This document shows positions 1-36,330 of a stretch of 36,330 bases of DNA, piece by piece. The position numbers were made by a program, and so were the translations under genes. Numbering within the stretch: position 1 is the stretch's first letter; every line of letters starts with the position of its first letter. The stretch covers positions 1 through 36,330 of the forward strand of contig NZ_QGHD01000026.1 of the NCBI RefSeq assembly GCF_003148885.1. Reading direction: 5' to 3'. Source of the DNA: Hallerella porci. GTDB taxonomy: Bacteria; Fibrobacterota; Fibrobacteria; Fibrobacterales; Fibrobacteraceae. The notes beneath the pieces are model-generated. The model saw nothing but the letters and a program-made list of their open reading frames with translations. It searched no databases and was not told the DNA's origin.

Positions 1-120
1 GGGAAATATGTTCACCGGATTTTTGGAAATGACATTTCCCAGGGGAAATATGTTCACCGGATTTTTGGAAATGACATTTCCCAGGGGAAATATGTCCGCT
101 AGATTTTAAGAATGAGATTT
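1..120. repeat. 42-bp tandem repeat, cut by window start
   Basis: Two identical 42-bp units lie at 1-42 and 43-84, and a diverged third copy starts at 85 with the same GGGAAATATGT head. Each unit begins with GGGAAAT and ends near ATTTCCC, so every unit is itself a weak inverted repeat. The array may extend to the left, outside the window. The units have no stop in at least one frame on each strand (14 codons per unit), but there is no sign of a gene. They could be the end of a larger array or an insertion-sequence end; I cannot tell which. Confidence 0.85.
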
Positions 121-7762: not shown

Positions 7763-8410
7763 ATGCCTATTGCAGCAAACACAAAAGTCGCCATCCATTA
7801 CACTCTTACCGACGACGACGGAAAAGTCATCGATTCTTCCGCAGGCAAAGACCCGCTGAATTACATTCAAGGTCAAGGCATGATCGTGGTCGGTCTTGAA
7901 AAAGCGATGCTCGGCAAAGAAGTCGGCGATAAATTTAATGTCGACGTGATTCCGTCCGAAGGCTACGGCGAATACAACGAAGAATTGGTTCGTCCGATTC
8001 CGAAGTCTGCATTCCAAGCCGAAAAAATTGAACCGGGAATGACTTTTTACGCGAACACTCCCGCAGGTCCGATTCCTTTAACCGTTTCCCGCGTCGAAGA
8101 CGAAAATGTGATTATCGATATGAATCACGAACTCGCCGGAAAAACTCTCCATTTTGCCATCGAAGTCGTGAGCGCAGAACCGCTTTCGGCAGAAGAACTC
8201 AAAGCGATGGAAGAACATGCGCATCATTGCTGCTGCGGTAAGCACGAAGATGGCGAAGGCGAATGCTGCGGGAAGCATGAACACGGCGATGGCGAATGCT
8301 GCGGTAAGCACGAACACGGCGATGGCGAATGCTGTGGAAAGCATGAACACGGCGATGGCGAATGCTGCGGTAAGCACGAAGATGGTGAATGCTGCTGCAA
8401 AGACAAGTAA
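7763..8410 (+). CDS. slyD: SlyD-like FKBP peptidyl-prolyl isomerase
   Basis: A 215-aa peptidyl-prolyl cis-trans isomerase and chaperone. The FKBP fold (1-70 and 125-145, with VIDSSAGKDPLNYIQGQGMIVVGLEKAMLG split by an insert-in-flap domain at about 70-125) is typical of SlyD, which in E. coli also delivers nickel to hydrogenase. The C-terminal tail from 151 is very rich in metal ligands: I count 14 Cys and 11 His, mostly in an 11-residue repeat with core GECCGKHEHGD. E. coli SlyD has a Cys/His tail too, but it is not a clean tandem repeat like this one. The tail is probably a Ni/Zn/Cu buffer. The gene ends in a strong hairpin terminator. Confidence 0.92.
   Translation: MPIAANTKVAIHYTLTDDDGKVIDSSAGKDPLNYIQGQGMIVVGLEKAMLGKEVGDKFNVDVIPSEGYGEYNEELVRPIPKSAFQAEKIEPGMTFYANTPAGPIPLTVSRVEDENVIIDMNHELAGKTLHFAIEVVSAEPLSAEELKAMEEHAHHCCCGKHEDGEGECCGKHEHGDGECCGKHEHGDGECCGKHEHGDGECCGKHEDGECCCKDK
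8256..8398 (+). repeat. 33-bp tandem repeat in slyD tail
   Basis: About four copies of a 33-bp unit (11 codons, core GECCGKHEHGD) encode the metal-binding tail. The copies differ mostly at third codon positions (for example AAGCAC versus AAGCATG contexts), so the protein repeat is kept better than the DNA repeat. The last unit is shortened. Copy number could vary between strains by slippage. Confidence 0.9.
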
Positions 8411-23422: not shown

Positions 23423-23745
23423 GGTTCTCCGGGACGTCGCAGAAGGTGGTGATGACCGTCTCTAGGTTCTCCGACTCTCCGATGAGGCTAGCGACGACTG
23501 TCTCTAGGCTCTCCGACACTCCGATGAAGCTAGCGACGACTGTCTCTAGGCTCTCCGACACTCCGATGAAGCTAGCGACGACCGTCTCTAGGTTCTCCGA
23601 CTCTCCGATGAGGCTAGCGACGACCGTCTCTAGGCTCTCCGACACTCCGATGAAGCTAGCGACGACCGTCTCTAGGTTCTCCGACACTCCGATGAAGCTA
23701 GCGACGACCGTTTTTAGGCTCTCCGGAACATCGGAGATAACATTT
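23423..23745. repeat. 42-bp tandem repeat array, seven units
   Basis: Seven full 42-bp units start at 23423, 23465, 23507, 23549, 23591, 23633 and 23675, and a partial eighth starts at 23717. Inner units are about 90-95 percent identical, beginning GGYTCTCCGAC and ending CTCTA; the first and last units are diverged. There are no spacers, so this is not CRISPR. The array is open in a frame on both strands: on the minus strand it would encode a 14-residue repeat with core LETVVASFIG and alternating SES/SEN. No ATG with a ribosome site starts it, so coding is doubtful. Confidence 0.93.
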
Positions 23746-23787: not shown

Positions 23788-25155
23788 TTAAAACAAGGCT
23801 TTCACCCCGAAGTGCAAAAGGCCTTCGAGCGGGTCGGTGCCGTTGCTTAATGCGTAAAAGAGCGAGAAACTCCAAAAGCCGCGATATTGTGAAATGCCGA
23901 TGCCATAGCTGAATGTGCGAATCCAGCCGTGAGCGGGAGCGAGACCGCGGTGTAATGCGGGTTCGAAGAAAAGATGAAACGCGGTATTTTCGACCGCTTG
24001 CCATTGCAAATCGGCTTCGGTGATGCCGTAAGCGCGGGTGCGGAAAAATCCAGGGCGAAATCCTTTGAGATTTGAAACGCCGCCGAGTTCATAAAGTTCT
24101 GTGTATTTAAAATCGCGGTCCGTCGGGAGAAGGGTTCCCGCCCACGCTGAGGTTTGCAAAACAAATGCGGAAACGATCGGCGTTAAAAGACGCGCGTCGG
24201 CGTGCAAATCCGTCGTGAACGCATGCGAAGAATCCTTCCTATCTTTTGTGACGCGGAATATCCCGTGAAATGTTACCCCATGCCGCGGAAGAATCACGCG
24301 GTCTTCATTTTTATATTGCGTTTCTAATGTGTAAATCCAGCGGTCATTCCCGACGCCGCCTAGGACTGCAAATTCAAAAAAGAATCCGATACTCCGCGAA
24401 ACTCCCGCTTCAATTTCTGCGCTGCGGAAGGAGGAATCTTCTTCGAAACTTCCGCGAACAATTCCATTCCAATCTGTTCCGAGAAGCCACGGTTCTTTAT
24501 ACGATGCGCTGAGAGAATGGCCAAAGTCTCCCGTTTCTCCCGATACCGCTAAATCGCGTCCCGTGCCACGCATATTGTAAAGATGCAAATCGATATTCCC
24601 CGCCCAACCCCCAGCATCGCCGCTCGCATACGAAAGCATTCCTTCGAAACTGTTGACCGAAAGATCCCGCATAAAAAAGACGGGCACGAGTTTATTGCGC
24701 AAAGAATCGCGGAAAAGTTTTGGCTCTGCGGTGGATTCAAAATAGCCCGAGTTAATGAGTTTGCGTTTCGCCCGTTCCAAATCCAAAAGCCTAACCAAAG
24801 AGCCCGCCGTTAATCCCGAAAGTTTTGCAAATGTTTCGTGCTTGCTGCGCGAATTTTCGGCGTTTTCTGCCGCTGCCCAAACGAATGCATTTCCGCGTTT
24901 TAATGTAACGGTTGCGTTTCCCAAAGAATCGACTTCAAAAGAAGCGTTCGCAAAAGGGAATCCATTTTCCGATAATTCATCGACAAATTCTTTTAAAACT
25001 TCATCGCCTTTTTCGCAATTTTCTTCTCGCAATTTTCCAAAAAATTGTTCCGCTTTTTCATCGACATCGCCGACGATGCGCACGCTTTGAATGACGCAAT
25101 GCGACGCTTGCGCTAAATTCAAAAAACAGAAAAATGCCAAAAGAAAATATTTCAT
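23788..25155 (-). CDS. Omp85/BamA-like outer-membrane protein
   Basis: A 455-aa exported protein. A signal peptide covers about 1-17 (MKYFLLAFFCFLNLAQA). Residues 22-150 look like one or two POTRA-type domains (VIQSVRIVGDV..., LDLERAKRKLINSGYFES). Residues about 165-455 form a beta-barrel with GGVSNLKGFRPG, comparable to the Omp85 (L)GG...(R)G(F/Y) element, and a C-terminal phenylalanine. It is much shorter than BamA and closer to TamA/surface-antigen types. It is the last gene of a five-gene operon, 3 bases after a giant outer-membrane protein, and could be its dedicated assembly factor. Confidence 0.8.
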   Translation of the reverse strand: MKYFLLAFFCFLNLAQASHCVIQSVRIVGDVDEKAEQFFGKLREENCEKGDEVLKEFVDELSENGFPFANASFEVDSLGNATVTLKRGNAFVWAAAENAENSRSKHETFAKLSGLTAGSLVRLLDLERAKRKLINSGYFESTAEPKLFRDSLRNKLVPVFFMRDLSVNSFEGMLSYASGDAGGWAGNIDLHLYNMRGTGRDLAVSGETGDFGHSLSASYKEPWLLGTDWNGIVRGSFEEDSSFRSAEIEAGVSRSIGFFFEFAVLGGVGNDRWIYTLETQYKNEDRVILPRHGVTFHGIFRVTKDRKDSSHAFTTDLHADARLLTPIVSAFVLQTSAWAGTLLPTDRDFKYTELYELGGVSNLKGFRPGFFRTRAYGITEADLQWQAVENTAFHLFFEPALHRGLAPAHGWIRTFSYGIGISQYRGFWSFSLFYALSNGTDPLEGLLHFGVKALF

Positions 25156-25158
25156 CGT

Positions 25159-28047
25159 TTAGAAATAAGCCCTCGCCTCCATCGACATTTTTTGGAAGAC
25201 GCCAGATTCTGCATTTCCAAAACGAATCACATACGAGAATCCGAGAGAAAGATATTCATTTGCATCGACCGTAATCGTTGCCGCATTGCGGAAAGTGGTT
25301 CCTTTGCCAAATCCCGAAACCATTTGATACGGAAGAATTTCATTATCGGTTGTCACGTAAGTAGCGCTGAATTCGTTTTCGGCGTGAATCATTTCTTCGT
25401 CGTCAAATCCTAAGACGAGCGCACCTTGGCGAAGGAATGCATCGAGAGAACCCATTTCATCTTTGCCGTCGCCTTTTCGAATCCAACCTTTCGGCATGAC
25501 ATAAAAATGCAGCGGGAGTTTCCGTTTCCACGATGCGGTCGCTTCGTAAATTTTCCAATCCATTTTTTGAAAGGTTTCGAGTTTTACAATTTCAAGCCCG
25601 GGAATGAGTTCCCACAGTTCATTTTTTCTACCCGCGTAAACGAAATCCAATCGATGCCAAATGCGATTTTCAAAATACCCTTGCGAGGTATTGCGTTTTT
25701 CACTTTCCGTTCCCACTTTATATTCGATGGAGCCGCGATTTTGCACTTCATTCCACAAGATGGAAAGTTCGCCATTAAAAAGTCCGCTCGTGAGTTCGCG
25801 CAATTTGCTATTCCAAAACGGCGGTAAGAATAAATTTTTTCCCGTCGTGTCGCGGCCTTCGCTTTCCCCGTCAAAAGAAAATTCCAAATCGCGCAAGACG
25901 CCGTGGCGAATGCCAAATGCCCGCGGAATTAACGAGAACGAAAGAGTCATCGCCGCAGAACTTGCTCGCACCGCATCTGCGGAATCGCTACGTCCCATGC
26001 CTTCGTAAACATAATCGCCGTTGTCTACGCCTTCGACAAATACGCCGGCGAGACTATCGAATTTGACATCGCCCGTTCCCGGCGCAACCGCTTTATAAAT
26101 CGGCACATAAGGCACTTCACGCGTTAAACCGAGCCGATACGAAGCCCGCCCCGAAAATGGTGAATTGGAATTTCCCCAATCCAACGATTCTTCCGAAATC
26201 CATGAATTGCTCGAGCCCGCAGTATCGAGAATCGTCCGCTTGTATTGCAAAATATGCGAGAACGAAAATGTTCGTAGCGAGATATTTGCCGAATGTTCAA
26301 AGCCCGCAATCTGTAACGAGTCCGAAAGATTTTTAAACGAAGTACCGGTCCGCGCTCGCGTTCCAAAAAGAGTTCCTTTGGTATTCCAATTTTCGCCGAC
26401 GATATTTAATCCGCTTTTCACATCCGCTTTTTCGGAATGATCGTTTTGAATTTCTTCGGAATCTTTTAACCAAACGCCGTAAGCCGCAGAACCAAAGGGA
26501 CGAAACATTCCCGTTTTCACTTCGGCGCGAGCCGTTCCTTGGTAACGCTCCATTTCGTAAGCGTTAAAAGAGACGACGCGGATGAAAGAAATTTCGCTTT
26601 CGGTAGCATTGTTTTTGTGCAAAAGAAATGCGCGCGCCCGCGAAGAATTCCAATTTTCTTCTTCGGTTAAACTGCGGCGATATCCCCATTCCATTCCGAG
26701 AAAATACGCCGCCGGTAATTTGAGGCGAAGTGAAATTTCGTCATAGCGTAACGAGCCCGCAATTTGCGCCGTGTCCAAATCCCAATTTTCTTTGAGCAAA
26801 TACGAATCCCAGTTGCGATCGGTTCCTTGATAATTTTTTTGGATAAATCCTTCTTGCAAATAATCGCCAGCAAATTCAACGCGAATGGGTGAATAACGCT
26901 GCATTTCCGTGCTATCGCTCGAAAGGAACCAGCGATAAGCTTTGCCCGAAGGCCCGCCGACTTGATGCGAAAGCGTATTCGTGTCCGCTTGACTTGCTCC
27001 GATTTCTAAGTCCGCGTAAGCGTGATTCCAAAGTTGTCCGCGAAGGCGTGCGCCCATACGCCGTAACATCCACGGGCGTTCTAATTCCCCAAGAGAATCG
27101 GGCCGTTCAAATTTTTTCCCTTTATCTTTTTTGAGAAGTTCGCGGTCTTCGTCCGTCCACGTATTGCGGCGAAGTCTCGCCGTATCGCTCGAAAGTTCAA
27201 AGCCCATGACATCTAACCATAAATGCTTTCCGCGATAGCTTCCATCCGCTGCTTTTAATATCTGCATGCCGCCCGAATTGTAAGCGTCAAATTCCACGCG
27301 AATTTCATCTTCTACGCCAGGGATAATGGCTCCCAAAAAATCCAAAACGCCGCCCGCATAATTGACGACGTAATCTTCATTGCGTTTGAGTTTTACCCCG
27401 TTCAAGAAAACCGTTTCGGAATTCGGTACGACTGCGACATAAGCTTCCGAAGTTCCCGTCGAAAGCAGATAACCTTTTTGCTGTCCATCTACGCCTTGAA
27501 ATGTCGAATGAATCGAATGCAATTCGTCAAATCCAAAGGCGCCACGCACCCGCGAATGCCCCGCCTTCACCCCTGCGGCAACTCCTAAAGTCGCCCGTTC
27601 CAATCCCGAAAGCCCAAGGGTCGATTCCTTCCACGTCATATCGCCCAAATGCAAAAACAAATGTTCCGTTTCCACGCGAAAGTGCACTTCATCGACTTCG
27701 CGGAGAGTGGCTGTGCGTTCCGAGCCCGCTTCCCGCCCGACATCCGAAAGGACTGCGTCAATATAAACGCCGTCCGTTGCTTCGCCCGAAACCGAAAGAT
27801 GCAATTCTTGTTCCACTTCGGTGCCGCCATCGCCCACGGTGACTTGAATCGTTTTCGAACCCGAAGTTTTGAGACGCAGTGTATCGCGCTCCGCTTTTTC
27901 GGCATCGGCTGCTTTTAATTTTTCCGCATTTTGTTTTAAGAATGGAACGCCGCGCCACGTCGGAATCGAATCTGCCGAAAGCTTGCAATAATTCCCCGCC
28001 CAAGCGCTTGCAGCCAAAAGAAAAATGAAGACGGCAAAAAATGGCAA
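25159..28047 (-). CDS. Large FCB-type outer-membrane protein (962 aa)
   Basis: A signal peptide (cleavage after SAWA, about residue 17) is followed by a mature region with no internal membrane helices and a C-terminal ARAYF, typical of outer-membrane beta-barrels. Residues about 65-125 (KTIQVTVGDGGTEVEQELHL, SGEATDGVYIDAVLSD) and about 210-260 (NSETVFLNGVKLKRNEDYVVNYAGGVLDFLG) resemble segments I know from long uncharacterised surface proteins of Bacteroidetes, Chlorobi and related phyla, some annotated as SprA-like. The remaining 650 residues show alternating aromatic/polar strands. It sits between a DUF2914-like membrane protein and an Omp85-like barrel. The function is unknown; transport or adhesion are both possible. 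Confidence 0.75.
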   Translation of the reverse strand: MPFFAVFIFLLAASAWAGNYCKLSADSIPTWRGVPFLKQNAEKLKAADAEKAERDTLRLKTSGSKTIQVTVGDGGTEVEQELHLSVSGEATDGVYIDAVLSDVGREAGSERTATLREVDEVHFRVETEHLFLHLGDMTWKESTLGLSGLERATLGVAAGVKAGHSRVRGAFGFDELHSIHSTFQGVDGQQKGYLLSTGTSEAYVAVVPNSETVFLNGVKLKRNEDYVVNYAGGVLDFLGAIIPGVEDEIRVEFDAYNSGGMQILKAADGSYRGKHLWLDVMGFELSSDTARLRRNTWTDEDRELLKKDKGKKFERPDSLGELERPWMLRRMGARLRGQLWNHAYADLEIGASQADTNTLSHQVGGPSGKAYRWFLSSDSTEMQRYSPIRVEFAGDYLQEGFIQKNYQGTDRNWDSYLLKENWDLDTAQIAGSLRYDEISLRLKLPAAYFLGMEWGYRRSLTEEENWNSSRARAFLLHKNNATESEISFIRVVSFNAYEMERYQGTARAEVKTGMFRPFGSAAYGVWLKDSEEIQNDHSEKADVKSGLNIVGENWNTKGTLFGTRARTGTSFKNLSDSLQIAGFEHSANISLRTFSFSHILQYKRTILDTAGSSNSWISEESLDWGNSNSPFSGRASYRLGLTREVPYVPIYKAVAPGTGDVKFDSLAGVFVEGVDNGDYVYEGMGRSDSADAVRASSAAMTLSFSLIPRAFGIRHGVLRDLEFSFDGESEGRDTTGKNLFLPPFWNSKLRELTSGLFNGELSILWNEVQNRGSIEYKVGTESEKRNTSQGYFENRIWHRLDFVYAGRKNELWELIPGLEIVKLETFQKMDWKIYEATASWKRKLPLHFYVMPKGWIRKGDGKDEMGSLDAFLRQGALVLGFDDEEMIHAENEFSATYVTTDNEILPYQMVSGFGKGTTFRNAATITVDANEYLSLGFSYVIRFGNAESGVFQKMSMEARAYF

Positions 28048-28050
28048 GGG

Positions 28051-28518
28051 TTATTCCCTAGCCGGTTCCACTTTGAACTGGCGGCTCGAAAGAAGTTTGC
28101 GTCCATTCACCGCATCCACACTCCATTCTCCCGGTCCCAAATTTTTGGGCGCAATCGAACTTTCGCACGCATCTTCAAGCATTGTACAATAGACGATTTG
28201 CACCGTATCCGCGCCATTATACCACACATGTCGAATCGTATTTTGCGGAATATCCCAACTGAGCTTCGGAAGCTCCGAATAAAAATGCAGCCGCGTATGC
28301 ACCGGGAAAATCGAATCAACGCCAAACGGAGCGCCGCCGACAATATTCCGACATACCGCGCTGAAAATCGGCGTTTTCTTTTCGTCTTTTGTCGCGTGCT
28401 GAAACTGTTCCATTCCGCTCACCGAAACAAAAATGCGATGGGCAATAAAACACAAAAAGACGACTAGGAAAACCAAAGTCGTCTTTCGAATGTAACGTAA
28501 AGGAGGAAGCCTTTGCAA
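28051..28518 (-). CDS. Single-pass membrane protein, DUF2914-like
   Basis: A 155-aa protein with one N-terminal membrane helix (about 13-30, TTLVFLVVFLCFIAHRIFV) and a periplasmic domain. The pattern SWDIPQNTIRHVWYNGADTV and GPGEWSVDAVNGRKLLSSRQFKVE resembles DUF2914 domains, whose function is not known. Three cysteines in the periplasmic part (CRNIV, YCTML, DACES) may form a disulfide. The gene is 8 bases after the LC7 gene and 3 bases before the large outer-membrane protein gene, so it is a candidate link between cytoplasm and envelope in this operon. Confidence 0.65.
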   Translation of the reverse strand: MQRLPPLRYIRKTTLVFLVVFLCFIAHRIFVSVSGMEQFQHATKDEKKTPIFSAVCRNIVGGAPFGVDSIFPVHTRLHFYSELPKLSWDIPQNTIRHVWYNGADTVQIVYCTMLEDACESSIAPKNLGPGEWSVDAVNGRKLLSSRQFKVEPARE

Positions 28519-28526
28519 AGGAACTC

Positions 28527-28946
28527 CTAGCGACGGATTTTGCTCGTATTCTGCGTGAATGCGGGCACAGCCTCAATCAATTTTTCAACCAATAATTTGT
28601 TGTAATCTTCAATGCGGTTCGGCAGTTTATTGCCCGAGAAAATTTGCACCAAAAGAAGTGCGCTTTCTACGGGAGCAATATAAATGGAACGCTTTTCGCC
28701 GGTATAAGAAACCGATTTGAATTCGCCTTCGCCGAGCATCACACCGATTTGCTTGGCGCTGCCAAAGGAAGCAGTACTTAGTACCGCAAGCGGTACCGTA
28801 TCCATTCCGATGGATCCAACTTCAGAAATCACAGAACCATCGCGGTGCACGAGCATAATATAATCCGCTTTGACATTCGTCAAATAGGCTTGCATTAAGC
28901 GACGCACGCGGTCGGCGTCATCCGTATAAACTGCAAAATCGCTCAT
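28527..28946 (-). CDS. Roadblock/LC7 domain protein, MglB-like
   Basis: A 139-aa small protein of the roadblock/LC7 superfamily. In Myxococcus the equivalent MglB dimer is the GTPase-activating partner of MglA. Visible features are the helix LMQAYLTNVKADYIMLVHRDGSVISEVG and the strand region SIYIAPVESALLLVQIFSG. It directly follows the MglA-like gene (12-bp gap), the same pairing seen in other phyla. GGGGT about 10 bases upstream of the ATG may act as ribosome site. Confidence 0.85.
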   Translation of the reverse strand: MSDFAVYTDDADRVRRLMQAYLTNVKADYIMLVHRDGSVISEVGSIGMDTVPLAVLSTASFGSAKQIGVMLGEGEFKSVSYTGEKRSIYIAPVESALLLVQIFSGNKLPNRIEDYNKLLVEKLIEAVPAFTQNTSKIRR

Positions 28947-28958
28947 AAAAATTTACCC

Positions 28959-29924
28959 CTACTTTTTCTTCGGAATATACGGGCGGAGTTCAATTTCGTC
29001 GTCCGAGATTCCTTCGTTTGAATCGAATGCAGGCTTGTTAAATGGCTTCGGAGCAGGTGCTGCCGGACGTCCAAAGGGCGAAGCGCTCTTTTGGAAAATG
29101 CCACCGCGGAACGGACTTGCCGCCATCGAAGGCATCGGACGCGGAGCTGAGGTTTCAAAAGGCTTCGGTGCTTCCACCGGTTTCGGCTGAACTTCGACCC
29201 GCGGTTCTTGCGTAGGAATTGGCTGAGCCGCCGGAGCGGGCTGTTCTTTCGAAGAAATCGAAACGCCATTTTGTCCGCCGAGAGTTACATCGTGAACTCC
29301 CGTATTGTGCACGCTATCTGCAGCCTTACGCAAAAATCCTTGTTTCACATTAAAGCGTTGAATCACAAGCATCGCAATCGCTTTTAAAGTCGTCACGACG
29401 CCTTTTCCATTATACGCTGTCGCCGGGAAAAATGGAATTTTATTCGGATTGAGAAGACGGTTCATTTCATCTAAGGTGAACACGTTTTCCATATCGCGCT
29501 TATTGTATTGTAAAACCAGCGGAATTTCGTCGAGGTTTACCCCATAATCTTCTAGGTTTTGGCGCAAATTCTGCAAACTTTCCAAATTTTCGGCTTCGCG
29601 AGAGCGTTGAGAGTCAGCGACAAAAACAATGCCATCCACCCCCCGCAGTACGATTTTACGCGTCGAGTTATAATAGACCTGACCAGGAACTGTATAAAGT
29701 TGAAACTTTGTCTTAAAGCCCTTGATGTCGCCTAAATTTAACGGGAGAAAGTCGAAAAATAAAGTTCTGTCGCCTTCAGTTTCGAGAGAAACCATGTCGG
29801 TTCTCTTATCCTGAGGCATCTTCTGATGAATCACCTGAAGATTAGTCGTCTTGCCGCTCAAACCAGGACCGTAATACACGACCTTGCAACTGATTTCACG
29901 AGTAGCGAAGTTAATCGATGACAT
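28959..29924 (-). CDS. mglA: MglA-like polarity GTPase with long tail
   Basis: A 321-aa small GTPase. Residues 1-195 closely follow Myxococcus xanthus MglA, which sets the leading pole in gliding and recruits motors. The P-loop GPGLSGKTTN is at 19-28, TVPGQ at 78-82 (Thr in place of the usual DxxG Asp, as in MglA), and NKRD at 141-144. Residues about 200-321 are a Pro/Ala/Ser-rich, probably disordered tail ending in a charged DDEIELRPYIPKKK. Ordinary MglA proteins end near residue 195, so the tail is unusual. AAGGAAG precedes the ATG. It is first in a five-gene operon with an LC7 protein and three envelope proteins. Confidence 0.9.
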   Translation of the reverse strand: MSSINFATREISCKVVYYGPGLSGKTTNLQVIHQKMPQDKRTDMVSLETEGDRTLFFDFLPLNLGDIKGFKTKFQLYTVPGQVYYNSTRKIVLRGVDGIVFVADSQRSREAENLESLQNLRQNLEDYGVNLDEIPLVLQYNKRDMENVFTLDEMNRLLNPNKIPFFPATAYNGKGVVTTLKAIAMLVIQRFNVKQGFLRKAADSVHNTGVHDVTLGGQNGVSISSKEQPAPAAQPIPTQEPRVEVQPKPVEAPKPFETSAPRPMPSMAASPFRGGIFQKSASPFGRPAAPAPKPFNKPAFDSNEGISDDEIELRPYIPKKK

Positions 29925-29947
29925 TTCTTCTTCCTTAAGTTTCTCTC

Positions 29948-29955
29948 TAATCTAA
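29948..29955 (-). promoter_or_regulatory. Promoter-like element of mglA operon
   Basis: TAGATTAG on the minus strand resembles TAnnTTTG, 23 nt upstream of the mglA ATG, with AAGGAAG as ribosome site in between. Confidence 0.4.
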
Positions 29956-29986
29956 CAAAAATACAGACAGTCGGCTCAATATTCCA

Positions 29987-30025
29987 TAAAAAAAGCAAAA
30001 CCGCAGGCCATTCGTCTGCGGTTTC
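29987..30025 (-). terminator. Intrinsic terminator after rpsT
   Basis: On the minus strand AAACCGCAG, a 9-nt loop, CTGCGGTTT, then TGCTTTTTTT. It lies 22 bases past the rpsT stop and isolates rpsT from the mglA operon. Confidence 0.9.
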
Positions 30026-30046
30026 AACTTCTAAGACAAAGCGAAA

Positions 30047-30316
30047 TTAAGCCTTGGCAGCAAGAGCGTTCACAACGCGAGCAACCTTAGCCTTATAATT
30101 GGCAGCACGGTTGGCGTTGAAACCTGCACGACCCTTAGCAGCAGCCTTATCGAGCATGCTGAAGAGGTTCGGCATTTCCTTGAGGGCTGCGTCCTTATCG
30201 CTTGCGGAACGAATCGTCTTGAGACTCGTACGGATTGCAGAACGGACGGAACGGTTAATTTCGGTCAGCTTCTTGGTCTGACGGATACGCTTTTTGCAAG
30301 ACTGATGATTAGGCAC
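30047..30316 (-). CDS. rpsT: Ribosomal protein S20
   Basis: An 89-aa small-subunit protein binding 16S rRNA. The start is a GTG at 30316 (mature PNHQSCKKRIRQTKK), with GGAG 8 bases upstream; the in-frame ATG at 30409 would add 31 residues not seen in S20 and lies upstream of the promoter. The sequence is rich in Lys, Arg and Ala helices (RSAIRTSLKTIRSA, LDKAAAKGRAGFNANRAANYKAKVARVV). Non-ATG starts are also known for rpsT in E. coli, where they limit translation. Confidence 0.95.
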   Translation of the reverse strand: MPNHQSCKKRIRQTKKLTEINRSVRSAIRTSLKTIRSASDKDAALKEMPNLFSMLDKAAAKGRAGFNANRAANYKAKVARVVNALAAKA

Positions 30317-30356
30317 CTTTTTATCTCCGGGTGAAAATCTTAAAAATGTTAGCACA

Positions 30357-30385
30357 ATATTAGTATAAATTGTGAATTTAGTCAA
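30357..30385 (-). promoter_or_regulatory. rpsT promoter, sigma70-like
   Basis: On the minus strand TTGACT (30385-30380) and TAATAT (30362-30357) are separated by exactly 17 bases, followed by TG, so the -10 also resembles TAnnTTTG (TAATATTG, one mismatch). It gives a leader of about 35 nt before the GTG start. Confidence 0.75.
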
Positions 30386-30414
30386 GTCCCCCCAGAACTT
30401 GCAGTCCATTTTTA

Positions 30415-30422
30415 TAGCTTTG
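30415..30422 (+). promoter_or_regulatory. TAnnTTTG promoter of aminotransferase gene
   Basis: TAGCTTTG, an exact consensus match, with its last base 4 nt before the ATG at 30427 and no ribosome binding site, so the mRNA would be leaderless. Confidence 0.55.
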
Positions 30423-30426
30423 GGCT

Positions 30427-31521
30427 ATGATTCCGTTCGTCAATTTGGGTGCACAATACCGAAAATATCAAGAAGAATTCCATTCCGCGACCGAAGAAGT
30501 CTTAAAAAGCGGAAATTTTATCGGCGGAAATGCAGTCAAAGAACTCGAAGAAAATTTACAGAGTGATGTCGGCGTCCGTTTTGCGATTTCTTGCGCAAGC
30601 GGAACAAGTGCTTTACAACTTTCTTTAAAAGCGCTCGGACTAAAACCCGGCGACGAAGTCATCGTTCCCGATTATACATTTATCGCAACCGCTGAAGCCG
30701 TCGCCTTAGAAGGCGGCGTTCCCCGCTTTGCCGATGTAAACGAGCATTTTTTAATTTCCCCAGAATCCGTTTTAGAACGCATTTCCGAAAAGACTGTGGG
30801 AATTATCGCCGTCGATTTATTTGGAGAATGCGCCGATTATCCGCGGTTAAAGGAAATTGCCGCAGAACATCATCTTTGGATTTTAGAAGATGCCGCACAA
30901 AGTTTTGGCGCTTTTCAGAACGGACGCGCAGCCGGTTCCCTTGCGACGATCGCTGCGACGAGCTTTTTCCCGACCAAGCCCTTCGGTTCATTTGGCGATG
31001 GCGGAGCGGTTTTTACCGACGACCCTAAACTCGCCGAAAAAGTCCGCCAATTTGCCAATCACGGAAAAGACGCAACCGATATTTACGCAGACCTCGGCAC
31101 AAACAGTCGATTAGACGCTGTCCAAGCAGCGGTTTTAAATGTCAAGCGGAAACATTTCGCAGAGGAACTCGCTCGCCGACGCGAGAACGCAGCCGCCTAC
31201 GATGCATTCTTTCGAGGACGTTCCGGTTTTCAAATTCCAGAAATTGCCTGCGGCAACACGAGCATTTATGCGCAATACGCTCTGCGGATTCAAGACCGCG
31301 ATGAATTTGTGCGCAAGATGAATTTGTGCGAAATTCCGACCCGCATTTATTACGAGCGAAATCTTTCTCTTGAGCCGTGCTTTGCCCGATTCCCTTCTGC
31401 TGCGAAAGATTTCTGCGGGAACAAAAACGCTTATCAATTAACCCAAAGCGTTTGCTGCCTTCCGATTTGCGCCTTCACCGACGTCGAAGAAATTCTGCAG
31501 CGCATTAAAACCGTTTTGTAA
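30427..31521 (+). CDS. DegT/DnrJ/EryC1 sugar aminotransferase
   Basis: A 364-aa PLP-dependent enzyme that aminates keto sugars bound to nucleotides. The PLP lysine is Lys184 in SFFPTKPFGSFGDGGA, and EDAAQSFGA (154-162) holds the ring-stacking and Asp155 residues. The sequence most resembles the WbpE/WlbC group, which makes amino sugars for O-antigen from UDP-2-acetamido-3-oxo-glucuronate, but other sugar substrates cannot be excluded. No other sugar-nucleotide gene is nearby. Its 3' end overlaps the converging outer-membrane gene by 17 bases. Confidence 0.88.
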   Translation: MIPFVNLGAQYRKYQEEFHSATEEVLKSGNFIGGNAVKELEENLQSDVGVRFAISCASGTSALQLSLKALGLKPGDEVIVPDYTFIATAEAVALEGGVPRFADVNEHFLISPESVLERISEKTVGIIAVDLFGECADYPRLKEIAAEHHLWILEDAAQSFGAFQNGRAAGSLATIAATSFFPTKPFGSFGDGGAVFTDDPKLAEKVRQFANHGKDATDIYADLGTNSRLDAVQAAVLNVKRKHFAEELARRRENAAAYDAFFRGRSGFQIPEIACGNTSIYAQYALRIQDRDEFVRKMNLCEIPTRIYYERNLSLEPCFARFPSAAKDFCGNKNAYQLTQSVCCLPICAFTDVEEILQRIKTVL

Positions 31522-32401
31522 TCGTAAATCCCGCGGACGCTTCAAGGAAAAAATCGCCGACTTTTCCATCGTTTTCATGAATCCAAAGTAAACTGAGAAT
31601 CAGCGGAAAATTGATGGACCAAGTGTGACTGTGATAACCGAGAACGCCTTTCGGGAAAATTTGATAAAATTGCATCCATTCATTTCGCGTCACATTTTTT
31701 CCGACGCTCGTCGTCCCCACGATTAATAAATTGCCAAACATTCCATTATCCCAAATCCAATTGTACGAATAACCCGCGCTCGGACCCGCGTGCACAAAGG
31801 ATTGCATTTCGGAATAAAATGAAAGCGCAGAATCTTTGGATTCAATTCCGTGATAATATGCGCCGATTCCTAAAATAAAACTGCCGTTACTTTTCCACTG
31901 CCTGCGATCCATATTGTAAACCGCCCGCAGAGAATGATCTTTATTCCAGATGTAATTGATAGAAAGACTCCCTTTGATAATCATCAGCTGATACGCTTCG
32001 GCTTTATCTTTTTCTTCGAATCTTTCCCGTTTATAAAATCCATCGTTCACACCGATTTCTGCGTCACCGAAAATGCGGTCGCTAAAATAATTGAATTGCA
32101 AATTCGCCGCTTTCGTTATCGGCAAATCTTCGTCTGCGCCAAAAGACATCGAAAGCATCGACGTCCACGAAAAAGGCCCATAACCGCCGCCAAAACCGAT
32201 ATGCACCGGAAGATTCGTTTTCAAATCTTTGTTGTCGGTACTTTCTCCCGAGAATGCTGCATAATTATATTGTGCGTAAAATTGAATGAAAAATTTCTCG
32301 GGAAACGCCGTCACCACCGAGTCCGTACTCGCCACCATTCCTTGCGCCTCTGCCCAAAGCAAACCCGCCAAAAGCCACAAACTGATGAGAAAAATTTTCA
32401 T
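31505..32401 (-). CDS. Predicted outer-membrane protein, DUF4421-like
   Basis: A 298-aa exported protein. The start at 32401 gives a good signal peptide (MKIFLISLWLLAGLLWAEA); an upstream in-frame start at 32506 would add a poor N-terminus and overlap another small ORF. The mature part alternates aromatic and polar residues with segments such as PVHIGFGGGYGPFSW, LSINYIWNKDHSLRAVYNMDRRQW, AGPSAGYSYNWIW and the C-terminus ASAGFTITKRF. This is typical of a beta-barrel and recalls the Bacteroidetes DUF4421 family; the match is from memory and tentative. TAAATTTC (32418-32411) ends 9 nt before the ATG. Function unknown. Confidence 0.7.
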   Translation of the reverse strand: MKIFLISLWLLAGLLWAEAQGMVASTDSVVTAFPEKFFIQFYAQYNYAAFSGESTDNKDLKTNLPVHIGFGGGYGPFSWTSMLSMSFGADEDLPITKAANLQFNYFSDRIFGDAEIGVNDGFYKRERFEEKDKAEAYQLMIIKGSLSINYIWNKDHSLRAVYNMDRRQWKSNGSFILGIGAYYHGIESKDSALSFYSEMQSFVHAGPSAGYSYNWIWDNGMFGNLLIVGTTSVGKNVTRNEWMQFYQIFPKGVLGYHSHTWSINFPLILSLLWIHENDGKVGDFFLEASAGFTITKRF

Positions 32402-32421
32402 GATGCGGGGGAAATTTAGAT

Positions 32422-32444
32422 AATTAGGAGGGAGGGAGAAAATG
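32422..32444. repeat. Short heptamer-periodic intergenic DNA
   Basis: AATTAGG, AGGGAGG and a diverged third unit form a 7-base period between the small ORF and the outer-membrane protein gene. It resembles the stretches at 269-303 and 23187-23214. Confidence 0.55.
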
Positions 32445-32624
32445 TTAACGATTCCAACCGTTATGGCCATCGCCATAAGAAATGGAATCGTCATCCTCGT
32501 CGCCAAAAGAATTTCCGCTGCTGATTCCTTGCCAAAGCCATTTGTGCTTTTTCGGAATGCGTTCCGTCTTTTTGGCTTTAAGATTTAAATTCGCTGAGTC
32601 ATTTAATTTTTTGAAATCATTCAT
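32445..32624 (-). CDS. Small hypothetical protein (59 aa)
   Basis: A 60-codon ORF from ATG 32624 to TAA 32447-32445. GAGGCGG lies 7 bases upstream of the ATG. The protein has a basic N-terminal half (KAKKTERIPKKHKWLWQG) and an acidic/glycine-rich end (GDEDDDS, GDGHNGWNR), with no membrane helix or signal peptide. Codon use (GCG, CGC, GAC) is like the neighbours. It is a plausible real gene, possibly an RNA- or protein-binding peptide, but I recognise no family. Confidence 0.55.
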   Translation of the reverse strand: MNDFKKLNDSANLNLKAKKTERIPKKHKWLWQGISSGNSFGDEDDDSISYGDGHNGWNR

Positions 32625-32704
32625 CGGTTTACCGCCTCAAAAAATCGGATACAAAAATAGACAATGGCACAGACTTTTTGATGATTTTTTTCGCTTTTGC
32701 ATCA

Positions 32705-32739
32705 TAACAAAAGAACCGCTTTTCGCAGTTCTTTTGTTA
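32705..32739 (-). terminator. Hairpin at end of restriction-gene remnant
   Basis: TAACAAAAGAAC (32705-32716) and its complement (32728-32739) form a 12-bp stem around an 11-nt loop. The stop codon of the minus-strand ORF is part of the stem. Its T-rich arm on the minus strand (TTCTTTTGTTA) is weak as a terminator tail. Confidence 0.6.
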
Positions 32740-34350
32740 CCCCTCCGCTTCCTTTTTCCAATCGATCTCTGGCAGGGCGTTTACAATTTCTACGCTCTGC
32801 ACGCTCAAAGCGATAACGCTTAAAAGCAAATCCAAAATATAGCGCGGTTTGCCGTGTTCCGTTGCCCAGTCGTTCGCGTTGTTGCGAATGCCCGTATCTT
32901 TGTTAGTGACATCGGCGTAGCGTTCCATAATCCATTCGATAGCGGACTTGCCGTTGACAATGTAATCGTAGGCTTTTTCTGGAATGCCCGAAACGGTAAT
33001 GCTCGGGTTATAAAGAATCGTCGACTTGTCCTTTTCTTTGCCGCTTTTGGCAAAAGACATTTTATCCACGGTAAAGTTCTCGCTTTCTAAACCCGTTACA
33101 GTTACGTTTTTTAACGGCGGAACGCTTTCGTAGTTTAAGTGGAGATGGCTAAGCTTTCTTCCGGCGTCGAGGAATGCACAAAAAGTTTCTTTGCTTTTAA
33201 CAAAAGGAATACGCGGAAGCTTTTTCTTTAAGTCGGATTCAAAAGTTGCGCGGTAACTTGAGCTATGGAGCAGACCATAAACGTAATAGAAGATATCTTC
33301 TTTAGTAACGGCGGCTCCGTATTTTTCTTTTGCCGCCTTTAAGGCAAAGTCCGTTACGGCATCGTGGCGGACATAGCCGCTGCCTGCATTCTGATTGAAC
33401 AACTCCTGCTGTGCATCTTCTGATTTTGAATACCAGTATAATGGGAAACATTGAGCAACGGCTGCAAGCATATTTAAATCTGGAATACAATCTGTCATTA
33501 AACTTGTAAAGCCTTTGGTTGAACCTAGACCATTAACACAGATTAAAAGATTTTCGTGTTCTGATGTTGGGAAAAAATCATCAAATTGACCACGTCGGTG
33601 TGTTAAATCTTCACCACGATAAAGAATTTGTTTACAGAAAGGTCTATAAAGTGATTTTGCATAGAAATCTTGATATTTTACTTTTTTGCCTTTTAACACT
33701 TTTGGAATTAAACTGCTGGACCATGCAATTTTTGTAGGGTCTGTAGTCAGTTCATTTTGTTTTCTTCCAATATTCCTTGTGTATTCTTCAATAAATCGTT
33801 TTACATTTCTTTCAACTTCTGGTTTGCTAAAATTATAAAGCCAAGGGTCACGATTTGTTCCTAAACCCAATGAATAAACGCTGAACACGCTCTTTGACTT
33901 TTCATTGAACTTCTTGTCTGCTTCTATATTCATAAAGCTGTCAAAATAATCGTTGCGCAGGCTTATCCAGTCGCCCTCTTCGTTGGGATGCAAAATTGTG
34001 GCGTTCTGCAAAAAGCCTTCACTTAAAACGCTTCTGTCTGCCTTTAAAAGTTCCAGCTTCTGTTCACGGGTCAAATAGTCTGCCACTTCTGCGTAGGTAA
34101 TTTTTGCCTTTTCTTTCTGTTCCTTAGTCTTTACTAAAATTGTAACGGCTACAGGAGTTCTGCTGCCAAGTCCAAAAACGTTTCCTCCTTCCTTACGGCG
34201 TAATTCGCCTTGAGTGCGGCAGTTTCCACGCAGGTTAAAGACATAGATTGCACTGAATTCTTCTTCTATGGTTTTCCTGAATCCGTCAAATGAATTGTTG
34301 TCCAGCCATGCACCGTTTGTAACAAAGCCGATTATTCCGCCGTCAAAGCA
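32737..34350 (-). pseudogene. 3' part of type ISP restriction-modification gene
   Basis: An open frame of about 537 codons with no start: it covers the end of the methyltransferase domain (GGIIGFVTNGAWLDNNSFDGFRKTIEEEF, FNLRGNCRTQGELRRKEGG) and the C-terminal target-recognition domain of single-polypeptide type ISP (LlaGI-like) enzymes. Those proteins are about 1500-1600 residues, with nuclease, helicase and methyltransferase parts upstream. Here the frame becomes unrelated at about 34345-34350, where it meets the YeiH gene, and all upstream domains are missing. A GTG at 34086 could start a 449-aa product, but this would lack catalysis. The stretch at 33400-34300 is more AT-rich than its surroundings, consistent with transfer. 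Confidence 0.8.
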
Positions 34351-35277
34351 TTGTCGCTCAGCCCGCTGATTGTCGGCCTCTTGTTTGGAATCATCTACGC
34401 CAACACCCTCCGAAAAGGAATGCCGGGAACATGGTCTCCGGGAGTCGCATTCTGCTCCAAAAAAATTTTGCGATTGGGCATTATTTTATACGGATTCCGC
34501 CTGACATTTTCCCAAATTGCCGAAGTGGGCGCGCCCGCGCTGATTATCGACGCCATCATCGTAACCGTAACTCTTGTCGGCGGTTATTTTTTGGGTTCCC
34601 GCCTTTTGAAAATGGACAAAGAAACCGCTATGCTCACGTCTGTCGGAAGTGCGATTTGCGGAGCAGCAGCCGTCCTTGGCGCAGAAGCCGCCCTCAAAGC
34701 AAAACCTTATAAAACAGCCGTCGCCGTTTCCACCGTCGTGCTGTTCGGAACTCTTTTAATGTTCCTGTATCCGATTTTGTATCGCAATGGAATAATCGCC
34801 CTTTCTCCCGAACAAACCGGTCTCTACATCGGATCGACCATTCACGAAGTCGCTCATGCAGTAGGCGCAGGAAACGCTACGGACACAGCAACTGTCGCCA
34901 TTATCGTCAAAATGATTCGAGTGATGTATCTGGTTCCTGTGCTGCTGGTTTTGGCATTTTTTGTCGTAGGAAAATTAGGAGACTCCGAAAGCAAAAGCGG
35001 AAAGAAAAAAATTGCCGTTCCCTGGTTCGCCTTTGGATTTTTGCTGGTCGTGATGTTCAACTCCTTGAATTTACTGCCCCAAAACCTTATTCATGGAATC
35101 GAAGTTTTGGACACCTTTCTGCTTTCAATGGCAATGACGGCTCTCGGCACAGAAACCAGCATGGACAAATTCAAGCAAGCAGGTCCCAAGCCATTTTTGC
35201 TGGCAGCCATTTTGTGCGTTTGGCTCGTTGGCGGCGGCTATGCGCTGGCAAAATACTTGGCTCCGGCTCTTGTGTAA
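34351..35277 (+). CDS. YeiH-family transporter, N-terminus missing
   Basis: A 308-aa membrane protein of the PF03601 family (YeiH; putative sulfate exporter, function unproven). At least eight hydrophobic segments are seen, with conserved stretches LSPLIVGLLFGIIYANT, LRLGIILYGFRLTFSQI, SVGSAICGAAAVLGAE and IHEVAHAVGAG. Family members usually have one more hydrophobic segment and about 30-40 residues before the LSPLIV stretch; these are absent, and the only starts are a TTG at 34351 or an internal ATG. Upstream sequence switches to the restriction gene on the other strand. It is therefore 5'-truncated and may be non-functional. A good terminator follows. Confidence 0.8.
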   Translation: MSLSPLIVGLLFGIIYANTLRKGMPGTWSPGVAFCSKKILRLGIILYGFRLTFSQIAEVGAPALIIDAIIVTVTLVGGYFLGSRLLKMDKETAMLTSVGSAICGAAAVLGAEAALKAKPYKTAVAVSTVVLFGTLLMFLYPILYRNGIIALSPEQTGLYIGSTIHEVAHAVGAGNATDTATVAIIVKMIRVMYLVPVLLVLAFFVVGKLGDSESKSGKKKIAVPWFAFGFLLVVMFNSLNLLPQNLIHGIEVLDTFLLSMAMTALGTETSMDKFKQAGPKPFLLAAILCVWLVGGGYALAKYLAPALV

Positions 35278-35303
35278 AAAGCAAAAAATAAATTCAGCAT
35301 TTT

Positions 35304-35332
35304 AAGATTTGCCCGCAACAGGCAAATCTTTT
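35304..35332 (+). terminator. Intrinsic terminator after YeiH gene
   Basis: AAGATTTGCC (35304-35313), a 7-nt loop and GGCAAATCTT (35321-35330), followed by TTC. Confidence 0.85.
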
Positions 35333-35402
35333 CATTTTGCGTTAGGGATGGCAAGCAACGCAAACCGATAACGCCACAACTCGACCCGGGCAAAACACGT
35401 TT

Positions 35403-36044
35403 TTAGTATCGAATTGTTTTGGATGTTTTCCTGTTTAGAAATTTTCCTGATGCGTCTCTATTGTGCTTTTTCATCGAAATATTTTTGCGATTATAATTAA
35501 AACGTTTAATTGAAGTGACGTCCGATGTCGGATTATTGGAAAAATTTCCCATAAAAAAAACATATGGAACAGTGTATTGTGATGAACAATCTAAAAAAAC
35601 AGATGCAGAATAATTATGTACTGAGATTGTGTCGCCTTTATTTGTACTAAAAGTCAGAGGAATGTATACATAGTTAGAATCAAAAACGTTTTTCATGGCG
35701 TTATCAGTAGAACTAATGCTCACCTGTTTAAGCTTTACAATTTTTGCGGCAATTTTAGAGGAATCTGCAAGAAGAATTGGAATCTTTTCATCTACAAAAA
35801 AAGTATCCAGACCAACAGAATCTACAATGCCATCTAAATCTATGGTGTTTCGATCCCAATTTATGATATAAGGCTTGTTGGGAATATACTTGGTCGTTTG
35901 CATCCCGTGGTATTCAATTTCAGGACAGCGAATTTGCGAATCTGCCGCCGATGAAGAACTTTTGCGCGCAGAACTGGAACTTGCCGCATCTTGGGCAAAA
36001 CAAACTGAAGATATAAAGAGTAATGTAAGAAAAAAACGCTTCAT
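35403..36044 (-). CDS. Small secreted protein with Ser-rich linker
   Basis: A 213-aa exported protein. The ATG at 36044 (MKRFFLTLLFISSVCFAQ) gives a clear signal peptide; an upstream in-frame start adds only six residues. After the cleavage site follows a serine-rich linker (AASSSSARKSSSSAAD), a style common in secreted Fibrobacter proteins. The rest has no recognised domain; beta-strand-like patterns (IRCPEIEYHGM, YVYIPLTFSTNKGDTISVHN) suggest a small sandwich, and the C-terminus is basic (KRFNYNRKNISMKKHNR). Its start is 4 bases past the stop of the LolA-like remnant, so the two may once have been one operon. Confidence 0.7.
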   Translation of the reverse strand: MKRFFLTLLFISSVCFAQDAASSSSARKSSSSAADSQIRCPEIEYHGMQTTKYIPNKPYIINWDRNTIDLDGIVDSVGLDTFFVDEKIPILLADSSKIAAKIVKLKQVSISSTDNAMKNVFDSNYVYIPLTFSTNKGDTISVHNYSASVFLDCSSQYTVPYVFFMGNFSNNPTSDVTSIKRFNYNRKNISMKKHNRDASGKFLNRKTSKTIRY

Positions 36045-36048
36045 AAAT

Positions 36049-36233
36049 TCAATATTGTACAATGTAGATGGAGATACTTTGAGAGGTTCCCATCACATTC
36101 ATGGTTGTTCGAATTTCCATTTCAATGGAATCCTTCGCAAAGGAACTTTTTTTAGGTCGTTTCTTACTTGATCAAGGGTAAGCGCAAACGACGAAATTGC
36201 AAGAATAAATGTAAATATGGCTGTTTTATACAT
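36049..36233 (-). pseudogene. Frameshifted LolA-like gene remnant
   Basis: The frame starts at ATG 36233 with a signal peptide (MYKTAIFTFILAISSFA) and LTLDQVRNDLKK, then shifts at a run of seven A residues. In the next frame the likely continuation reads SSFAKDSIEMEIRTTMNVMGTSQSISIYIVQY, then a TGA. Together these look like the N-terminus of LolA/outer-membrane lipoprotein-sorting-type proteins, which are about 200-250 residues; only about 60 remain. One extra A would restore the frame up to the stop. It is broken by both a frameshift and a truncation. Confidence 0.65.
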
Positions 36234-36275
36234 TTTTATTAGTGTCCGGTAAAAAATATAGCCAAAAATAAAAAT

Positions 36276-36315
36276 GGCAGGCTCCTCAGACGAAGAACCT
36301 GCCCGTTTTGTTTTT
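36276..36315. terminator. Hairpin with T-tracts on both sides
   Basis: GGCAGG (36276-36281) pairs with CCTGCC (36298-36303), with additional TC/GA pairs inside the loop, and is flanked by A-rich left and T-rich right sequence. It may end a gene beyond the window on the minus strand. The sequence AGTGTCCGG at 36241 is not explained. Confidence 0.65.
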
Positions 36316-36330
36316 ACCTTGTAATTACCA

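What the first reader, a model, noticed from the sequence alone, without database searches (positions are those of the whole stretch)
34339..34355. Type ISP restriction gene and YeiH gene cut at the same point
On the minus strand the methyltransferase domain stops at its FDGG/IIGFVTN region; on the plus strand YeiH begins abruptly at LSPLIV without its first membrane segment. Both losses meet within about 15 bases. Either a deletion or recombination joined two partial genes, or the assembly is chimeric here.
Basis: partly seen in the sequence, partly recalled or inferred. Interest (0 to 1): 0.5.

Follow-up and report, generated by a model that had tools for sequence, protein, structure and literature searches.

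The report
Two broken genes fused at junction
In a gut Fibrobacter genome, the tail of a dead restriction-enzyme gene and a recently exchanged transporter gene missing its first part appear to have been spliced together at a short stretch of DNA that both genes share, which is ordinary genome wear and tear rather than a new system.

Summary
On the minus strand only the C-terminal part of a Type ISP restriction-modification gene remains (32737-34341). On the plus strand a YeiH-family gene (34351-35277) is 34 residues short and lacks its first membrane segment. The two homologies overlap at 34327-34341, where the window matches intact yeiH of Fibrobacter intestinalis ATCC 43854 in 14 of 15 bases, the only same-orientation match that good between the two genes. 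The crossover lies in about 34335-34344.

This yeiH copy was recently exchanged between lineages: 4 differences in 943 bases, against 75% identity for a 6.3-kb block of the same contig. An intact paralogue lies on another contig. Of 80 named-genome relatives, 79 have at least 33 residues upstream. The lost yeiH 5' end, and the 193 missing ISP residues that were searched, were not found elsewhere in the assembly. This favours real short-homology recombination over a chimera, but no reads or second strain were available. An ISP front part lies on another contig, cut by an insertion-sequence end.

Ordinary: two pseudogene remnants joined in a rearranged region.

The parts
32737..34341 (-). C-terminal remnant of a Type ISP restriction-modification gene (end of the methyltransferase domain plus the target-recognition domain); pseudogene
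   Evidence: Pfam Type_ISP_C 2-342/342; LlaGI and LlaBIII matches from residues 912 and 1076; about 1110-1130 residues precede this point in two full-length relatives; first start codon GTG 34086
34327..34341 (.). 15-base stretch at the junction, 14 of 15 identical to intact F. intestinalis yeiH and at the same time ISP codons; crossover inside about 34335-34344
34335..35277 (+). 5'-truncated yeiH (putative sulfate exporter family), extra copy; first start codon TTG 34351; first membrane segment missing
   Evidence: TIGR00698 26-328/335; 4 differences in 943 aligned bases from F. intestinalis ATCC 43854; 79 of 80 named-genome relatives have at least 33 residues upstream of the test position, 4 here
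35403..36062 (-). convergent gene of unknown family, also beside yeiH in F. intestinalis
   Evidence: same arrangement in L056 (1591-2232 and 2359-3387); 34327-36055 is 95% identical overall and the part after yeiH 89.6%; no Pfam match
36243..36330 (.). end (TGTCCGGTAAAA) of an insertion-sequence-like repeat running off the contig; the same 88 bases start contig C44

Best explanation
A real illegitimate recombination joined two partial genes. (1) Shown: the genome holds, besides an intact yeiH on contig C8, a second yeiH with a convergent neighbour, nearly identical to the pair in F. intestinalis. (2) Shown: this copy is joined to the inside of a Type ISP restriction-modification gene at a place where the window matches intact yeiH in 14 of 15 bases while still encoding ISP residues. 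(3) Inferred: the join was made in the cell by short-homology strand exchange or break repair, and removed the yeiH 5' end on one side and the methyltransferase core of the ISP gene on the other. (4) Inferred: the ISP gene was also damaged elsewhere, since the only front part found lies on another contig and is cut off by an insertion-sequence end; that the two parts belonged to one gene is likely but not shown. The result is two pseudogene remnants. YeiH function can be kept by the intact paralogue; the ISP enzyme is lost.
For: The only same-orientation 15-mer match of 14/15 between ISP remnant and intact yeiH (1 of 1,651,545 pairs; 30 shuffles average 0.03) is at the junction. Intact yeiH in F. 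intestinalis (L056; L103 is the same record) with 4 differences in 943 bases, against 75% identity over window 25128-31392 and 67% over 31604-32305. Intact paralogue at G000:C8, in a neighbourhood whose proteins look by eye like those around yeiH in G002. The yeiH 5' end (apart from the diverged C8 paralogue) and the upstream DNA-alkylation-repair gene of F. intestinalis are not found elsewhere in the genome. A query of G009 ISP residues 1-1086 was found only as residues 10-893 on C21, next to an insertion-sequence end, so residues 894-1086 were not found.
Against: No read data, and only one assembly of this species could be searched, so the join is not independently confirmed. The missing pieces (about 0.1 and 0.65 kb) could lie in short contigs left out of the assembly; ISP residues 1087-1109 were not searched. 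Bases 34335-34341 could come from either parent: they are given to ISP because they encode Gly-Gly, which 7 of 15 aligned ISP loci have (the second Gly in 15 of 15; a 16th locus did not align); without them the overlap is 7 of 8 bases. At 13 of 15 matches the two genes show no excess over shuffles (2 same-orientation pairs, both at the junction, and 2 reverse; shuffle mean 1.8). Short homology also favours chimeras made in library preparation.
Confidence: 0.8

Rival explanations
1. Assembly, library or contamination chimera: two unrelated stretches were joined in vitro or by the assembler at a short shared string, so neither gene need be truncated in the cell.
For: Short shared sequence at the join. 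The junction is 2 kb from a contig end that runs into a repeat. Assembly listed with 1.73% contamination. The yeiH side is far closer to another species than a backbone block of the same contig is.
Against: The exact shared run is inferred to be only about 7-14 bases (left bound A34334; the ISP parent beyond 34341 is unknown), below usual assembly word sizes (general knowledge). The sequences that a false join would orphan were not found elsewhere in the assembly, as far as searched. The yeiH neighbour is only 89.6% identical to F. intestinalis, so this is not simply contamination by that strain.
Confidence: 0.17
2. An insertion sequence carried yeiH and its neighbour into the ISP gene (one-ended transposition): ISP front on C21, then IS, then neighbour and yeiH fragment, then ISP tail on C26. 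This is a variant of a real junction, so its odds overlap with those of the best explanation.
For: The ISP searches found one front part (C21) and one tail (C26) in the genome. Both contig ends run into sequence beginning TGTCCGGTAAAA.
Against: The two ends differ after the first 12 bases. A short copy with both ends visible (C1:9286-9657) pairs the C21-type end with an end unlike that of C26. Some 187 bases (36056-36242) with no match in L056 separate the yeiH block from the IS end. 20 kb of C21 share no detectable similarity with the 12 kb of G002 flanking the synteny break.
Confidence: 0.12
3. Short YeiH proteins starting at this point are normal, and the ISP gene simply begins here.
For: The frame is open from TTG 34351 and the rest of the YeiH profile scores above the family cut-off.
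Against: 79 of 80 named-genome relatives and 4 of 4 genus copies (one of these is the same gene as L103) have at least 33 in-frame residues from their furthest start codon to the test position, against 4 here. Two full-length ISP relatives have 1110-1130 further residues.
Confidence: 0.01

Closest known systems
YeiH family putative sulfate exporter (TIGR00698 / PF03601)
   Same: Profile match from position 26 to 328 of 335, above the curated cut-off; 4 differences in 943 bases from the F. intestinalis gene
   Different: 34 residues shorter than the F. intestinalis protein, without the first membrane segment; first start codon is TTG 34351
Type ISP restriction-modification enzymes (LlaGI, LlaBIII)
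   Same: C-terminal specificity domain complete; alignable with LlaGI and LlaBIII
   Different: Nuclease, helicase, coupler and methyltransferase core absent at this locus; a nuclease-helicase-coupler piece lies on another contig, cut by an insertion-sequence end
Short-homology (illegitimate) recombination junctions in bacterial genomes (general knowledge, recalled)
   Same: Breakpoint inside a short sequence common to both parents, with sequence lost on both sides
   Different: Nothing unusual seen; a near-identical parent is available only for the yeiH side

Membership tests
YeiH family (TIGR00698) | Score above the curated cut-off | tested here: met
   281.8 bits against a cut-off of 232.6
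YeiH family (TIGR00698) | Complete N-terminus with first membrane segment | tested here: not met
   Profile match starts at 26 of 335; 4 residues upstream of the test position against at least 33 in 83 of 84 rows (L013 and L103 are the same gene; L164 gave no upstream start); hydrophobic segment 8-32 of the intact gene missing
Type ISP restriction-modification enzyme | C-terminal specificity (target-recognition) domain | tested here: met
   PF18135 2-342/342, 362.5 bits
Type ISP restriction-modification enzyme | Mrr-family nuclease, helicase-like ATPase and coupler in the same chain | tested here: not met
   None in P0002; they are on contig C21 in a piece that ends at an insertion-sequence end
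Type ISP restriction-modification enzyme | Methyltransferase core (SAM-binding and NPPY motifs; motif names recalled, seen by eye in G009) | tested here: not met
   The remnant starts after these motifs; G009 residues 894-1086 were not found in the genome, 1087-1109 not searched
Insertion-sequence insertion at the junction | Terminal inverted repeat or direct repeat at the junction | tested here: not met
   No direct or inverted repeats of 10 bases or more in 34200-34500; the only TGTCCGGTAAAA match in the window (up to 1 mismatch) is at 36243

The most novel reading that the evidence does not exclude
The ISP restriction gene acted as an integration point for DNA arriving from another Fibrobacter lineage: incoming yeiH DNA was captured into the gene through a 15-base homology, so the event that brought the foreign segment also inactivated a barrier against foreign DNA.
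Probability: 0.12. Interest if true: 0.3.

Novelty: already known. Interest (0 to 1): 0.12.

Why it matters
It gives two odd-looking gene ends one ordinary cause, and it warns annotators not to call this YeiH or this restriction fragment functional. As a small case it documents a recent yeiH exchange between Fibrobacter lineages and the decay of a Type ISP gene.

Tried and rejected
Short YeiH as a normal form: rejected. That count uses the furthest in-frame ATG, GTG or TTG, so it is an upper bound for each true start; with ATG alone one locus falls to 28 (L165) and L178 has none. The 80 loci are the best of 114 found by peptide patterns, hence close relatives. L164 gave no upstream start and is counted as a miss.

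Insertion sequence at the junction: no repeat found. C21 as neighbour of C26 by synteny: no similarity between 20 kb of C21 and 12 kb of G002 beside the synteny break, nor with L185, L186 or L187; 6 kb of that G002 flank map to C6 and C32 in this genome. Junction string in viral contigs: no exact match (the tool may leave out records of this genome). Naming the strain: one paper search listing and passages of PMC6291624 gave no assignment; the window's organism is placed only as a genus-mate of F. intestinalis ATCC 43854, because the G005 contig and the named record have the same length, 22429, and the same match. The shuffle control used 30 single-base shuffles. In some searches I looked for one file per locus and the BLAST runs had no input; the files hold many records each, as found.

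Full report
What is there. The window is the whole contig C26 (36,330 bases) of a draft genome of 78 contigs and 2.85 Mb, listed with completeness 99.99 and contamination 1.73. It is a genus-mate of G005, which is Fibrobacter intestinalis ATCC 43854: G005 contig C78 (22,429 bases) has the length of the named record NZ_FUWU01000053.1 and gives the same 99% yeiH match. At 34.3 kb a minus-strand frame ends in the middle of a Type ISP methyltransferase, and a plus-strand yeiH begins without its start.

The ISP side. The remnant matches the Type_ISP_C domain completely. It aligns with LlaGI from residue 912 and LlaBIII from residue 1076, and with a 1029-residue adenine methyltransferase (7lo5) from residue 506. 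The nuclease, helicase, coupler and methyltransferase-core parts are therefore missing here. Type ISP enzymes are single chains of nuclease, helicase-like ATPase, coupler, methyltransferase and recognition domain (abstract of PMC4666363, seen). Long open frames with all these domains exist in G009 (1659 aa) and G005 (1762 aa). Searching the whole genome with residues 1-1086 of the G009 enzyme gave one match, residues 10-893, on contig C21. That piece carries nuclease, helicase and coupler. It then runs into an end beginning TGTCCGGTAAAA, at C21:44813, 170 bases before the contig stops. The last 179 bases of C21 recur at 7 other places in the genome at 97-99% identity, five of them over nearly the whole length. 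In the C43 copy, a frame overlapping the repeat matches a DDE transposase domain. In G009 numbering C21 stops at about 893 and C26 starts at 1110, a gap of about 216 residues. Of these, 193 (894-1086) were searched and not found, and 23 were not searched.

The yeiH side. F. intestinalis has the intact gene, 342 aa, with a first hydrophobic segment at residues 8-32. Over 34335-35277 the window differs from it at 4 of 943 aligned bases; the following 780 aligned columns are 89.6% identical. Window 25128-31392, on the same contig, is 75% identical to its counterpart in that genome, and 31604-32305 is 67% identical. The yeiH copy is therefore best read as recently exchanged between the lineages; the direction is not shown. 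The same genome has an intact yeiH on C8. Its neighbours look by eye like those around yeiH in G002 (SulP-, HAD-, RsmE- and RNase HII-like proteins, names by eye), so that one is probably the inherited copy. Among the 80 named-genome relatives kept out of 114 found, 79 have at least 33 in-frame residues from their furthest start codon to the test position, as do 4 of 4 genus copies, one of which is the same gene as L103. The window ORF has 4.

The junction. Intact F. intestinalis yeiH reads GCCGATTTTTCCGCC where the window reads GCCGATTATTCCGCC. On the other strand the same window bases are ISP codons for G-G-I-I-G. Of 16 ISP loci tried, 15 aligned here: 7 have Gly-Gly at the first two places, all 15 have the second Gly, and Ile, Val or Leu follow it. 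Of 1,651,545 same-orientation pairs of 15-base positions between the ISP remnant and intact yeiH, this is the only one with 14 or more matches; 30 shuffles average 0.03. At 13 or more matches there is no excess: two same-orientation pairs, both at the junction, and two in reverse, against a shuffle mean of 1.8. Caution: bases 34335-34341 could come from either parent, so the firm overlap is 7 of 8 bases (34327-34334) plus the glycine codons. The crossover lies between 34335 and about 34344. No repeat was found in 34200-34500.

Real or chimeric. A false join should leave the true continuations elsewhere in the assembly. The F. intestinalis yeiH 5' end and its upstream DNA-alkylation-repair gene are not found apart from the diverged C8 paralogue, and the searched part of the missing ISP middle is not found. 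The exact shared run, inferred as about 7-14 bases, is shorter than usual assembly words (general knowledge). Against this, both missing pieces could be small contigs left out of the assembly, this genome may never have had the F. intestinalis upstream gene, and no reads or second strain were available. I put a real junction at about 0.8.

Surroundings. Nucleotide similarity with G001-G005 ends near 32,305, and 6 kb of G002 on that side map to C6 and C32 here. The contig's right end, 36243-36330, is a repeat end shared with the start of C44. The region is thus rearranged and ends in a repeat. I considered that one insertion sequence links C21 and C26 across a split ISP gene. The two ends differ beyond their first 12 bases, and a short copy with both ends visible (C1:9286-9657) pairs the C21-type end with a different partner, so this stays a minor reading.

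Verdict. The best account is ordinary: short-homology recombination between a decaying restriction gene and a recently exchanged, redundant transporter gene, leaving two pseudogene remnants. The bolder reading, that the foreign segment entered through the restriction gene and disabled it in the same step, is not excluded.

Noticed in passing
window 34335-36055 versus L056 1580-3309: yeiH has 4 differences in 943 bases from the F. intestinalis copy, while a backbone block of the same contig is 75% identical and the part after yeiH 89.6%; the drop falls near the yeiH stop codon, which suggests exchange at gene level.
   Followed up: partly
L082 1516-4353 (G000:C21 42145-44982): Front two thirds of a Type ISP gene cut by an insertion-sequence end; a DUF6261 gene lies beside it, and by eye a similar gene sits upstream of the F. 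intestinalis ISP gene.
   Followed up: partly
window 32305-36330: Nucleotide similarity with five other Fibrobacter genomes (G001-G005) stops near 32,305 apart from the yeiH and ISP matches; the G002 flank expected there maps to contigs C6 and C32.
   Followed up: partly
window 36243-36330 and L189 1-88: Repeat end with a possible hairpin (GGCAGG...CCTGCC, by eye), shared by the end of contig C26 and the start of C44; insertion-sequence-like.
   Followed up: partly
window 1-95, 8231-8380 and 23454-23725: Tandem arrays: 42-base units (2.3 copies) at the contig's left end, 33-base units (4.5 copies), and 42-base units (6.5 copies).
   Followed up: no
L060 4936-5293: In-frame repeats (PQRCKDEFNVLNG-type units, by eye) open on both strands, just upstream of the intact yeiH on contig C8.
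   Followed up: no
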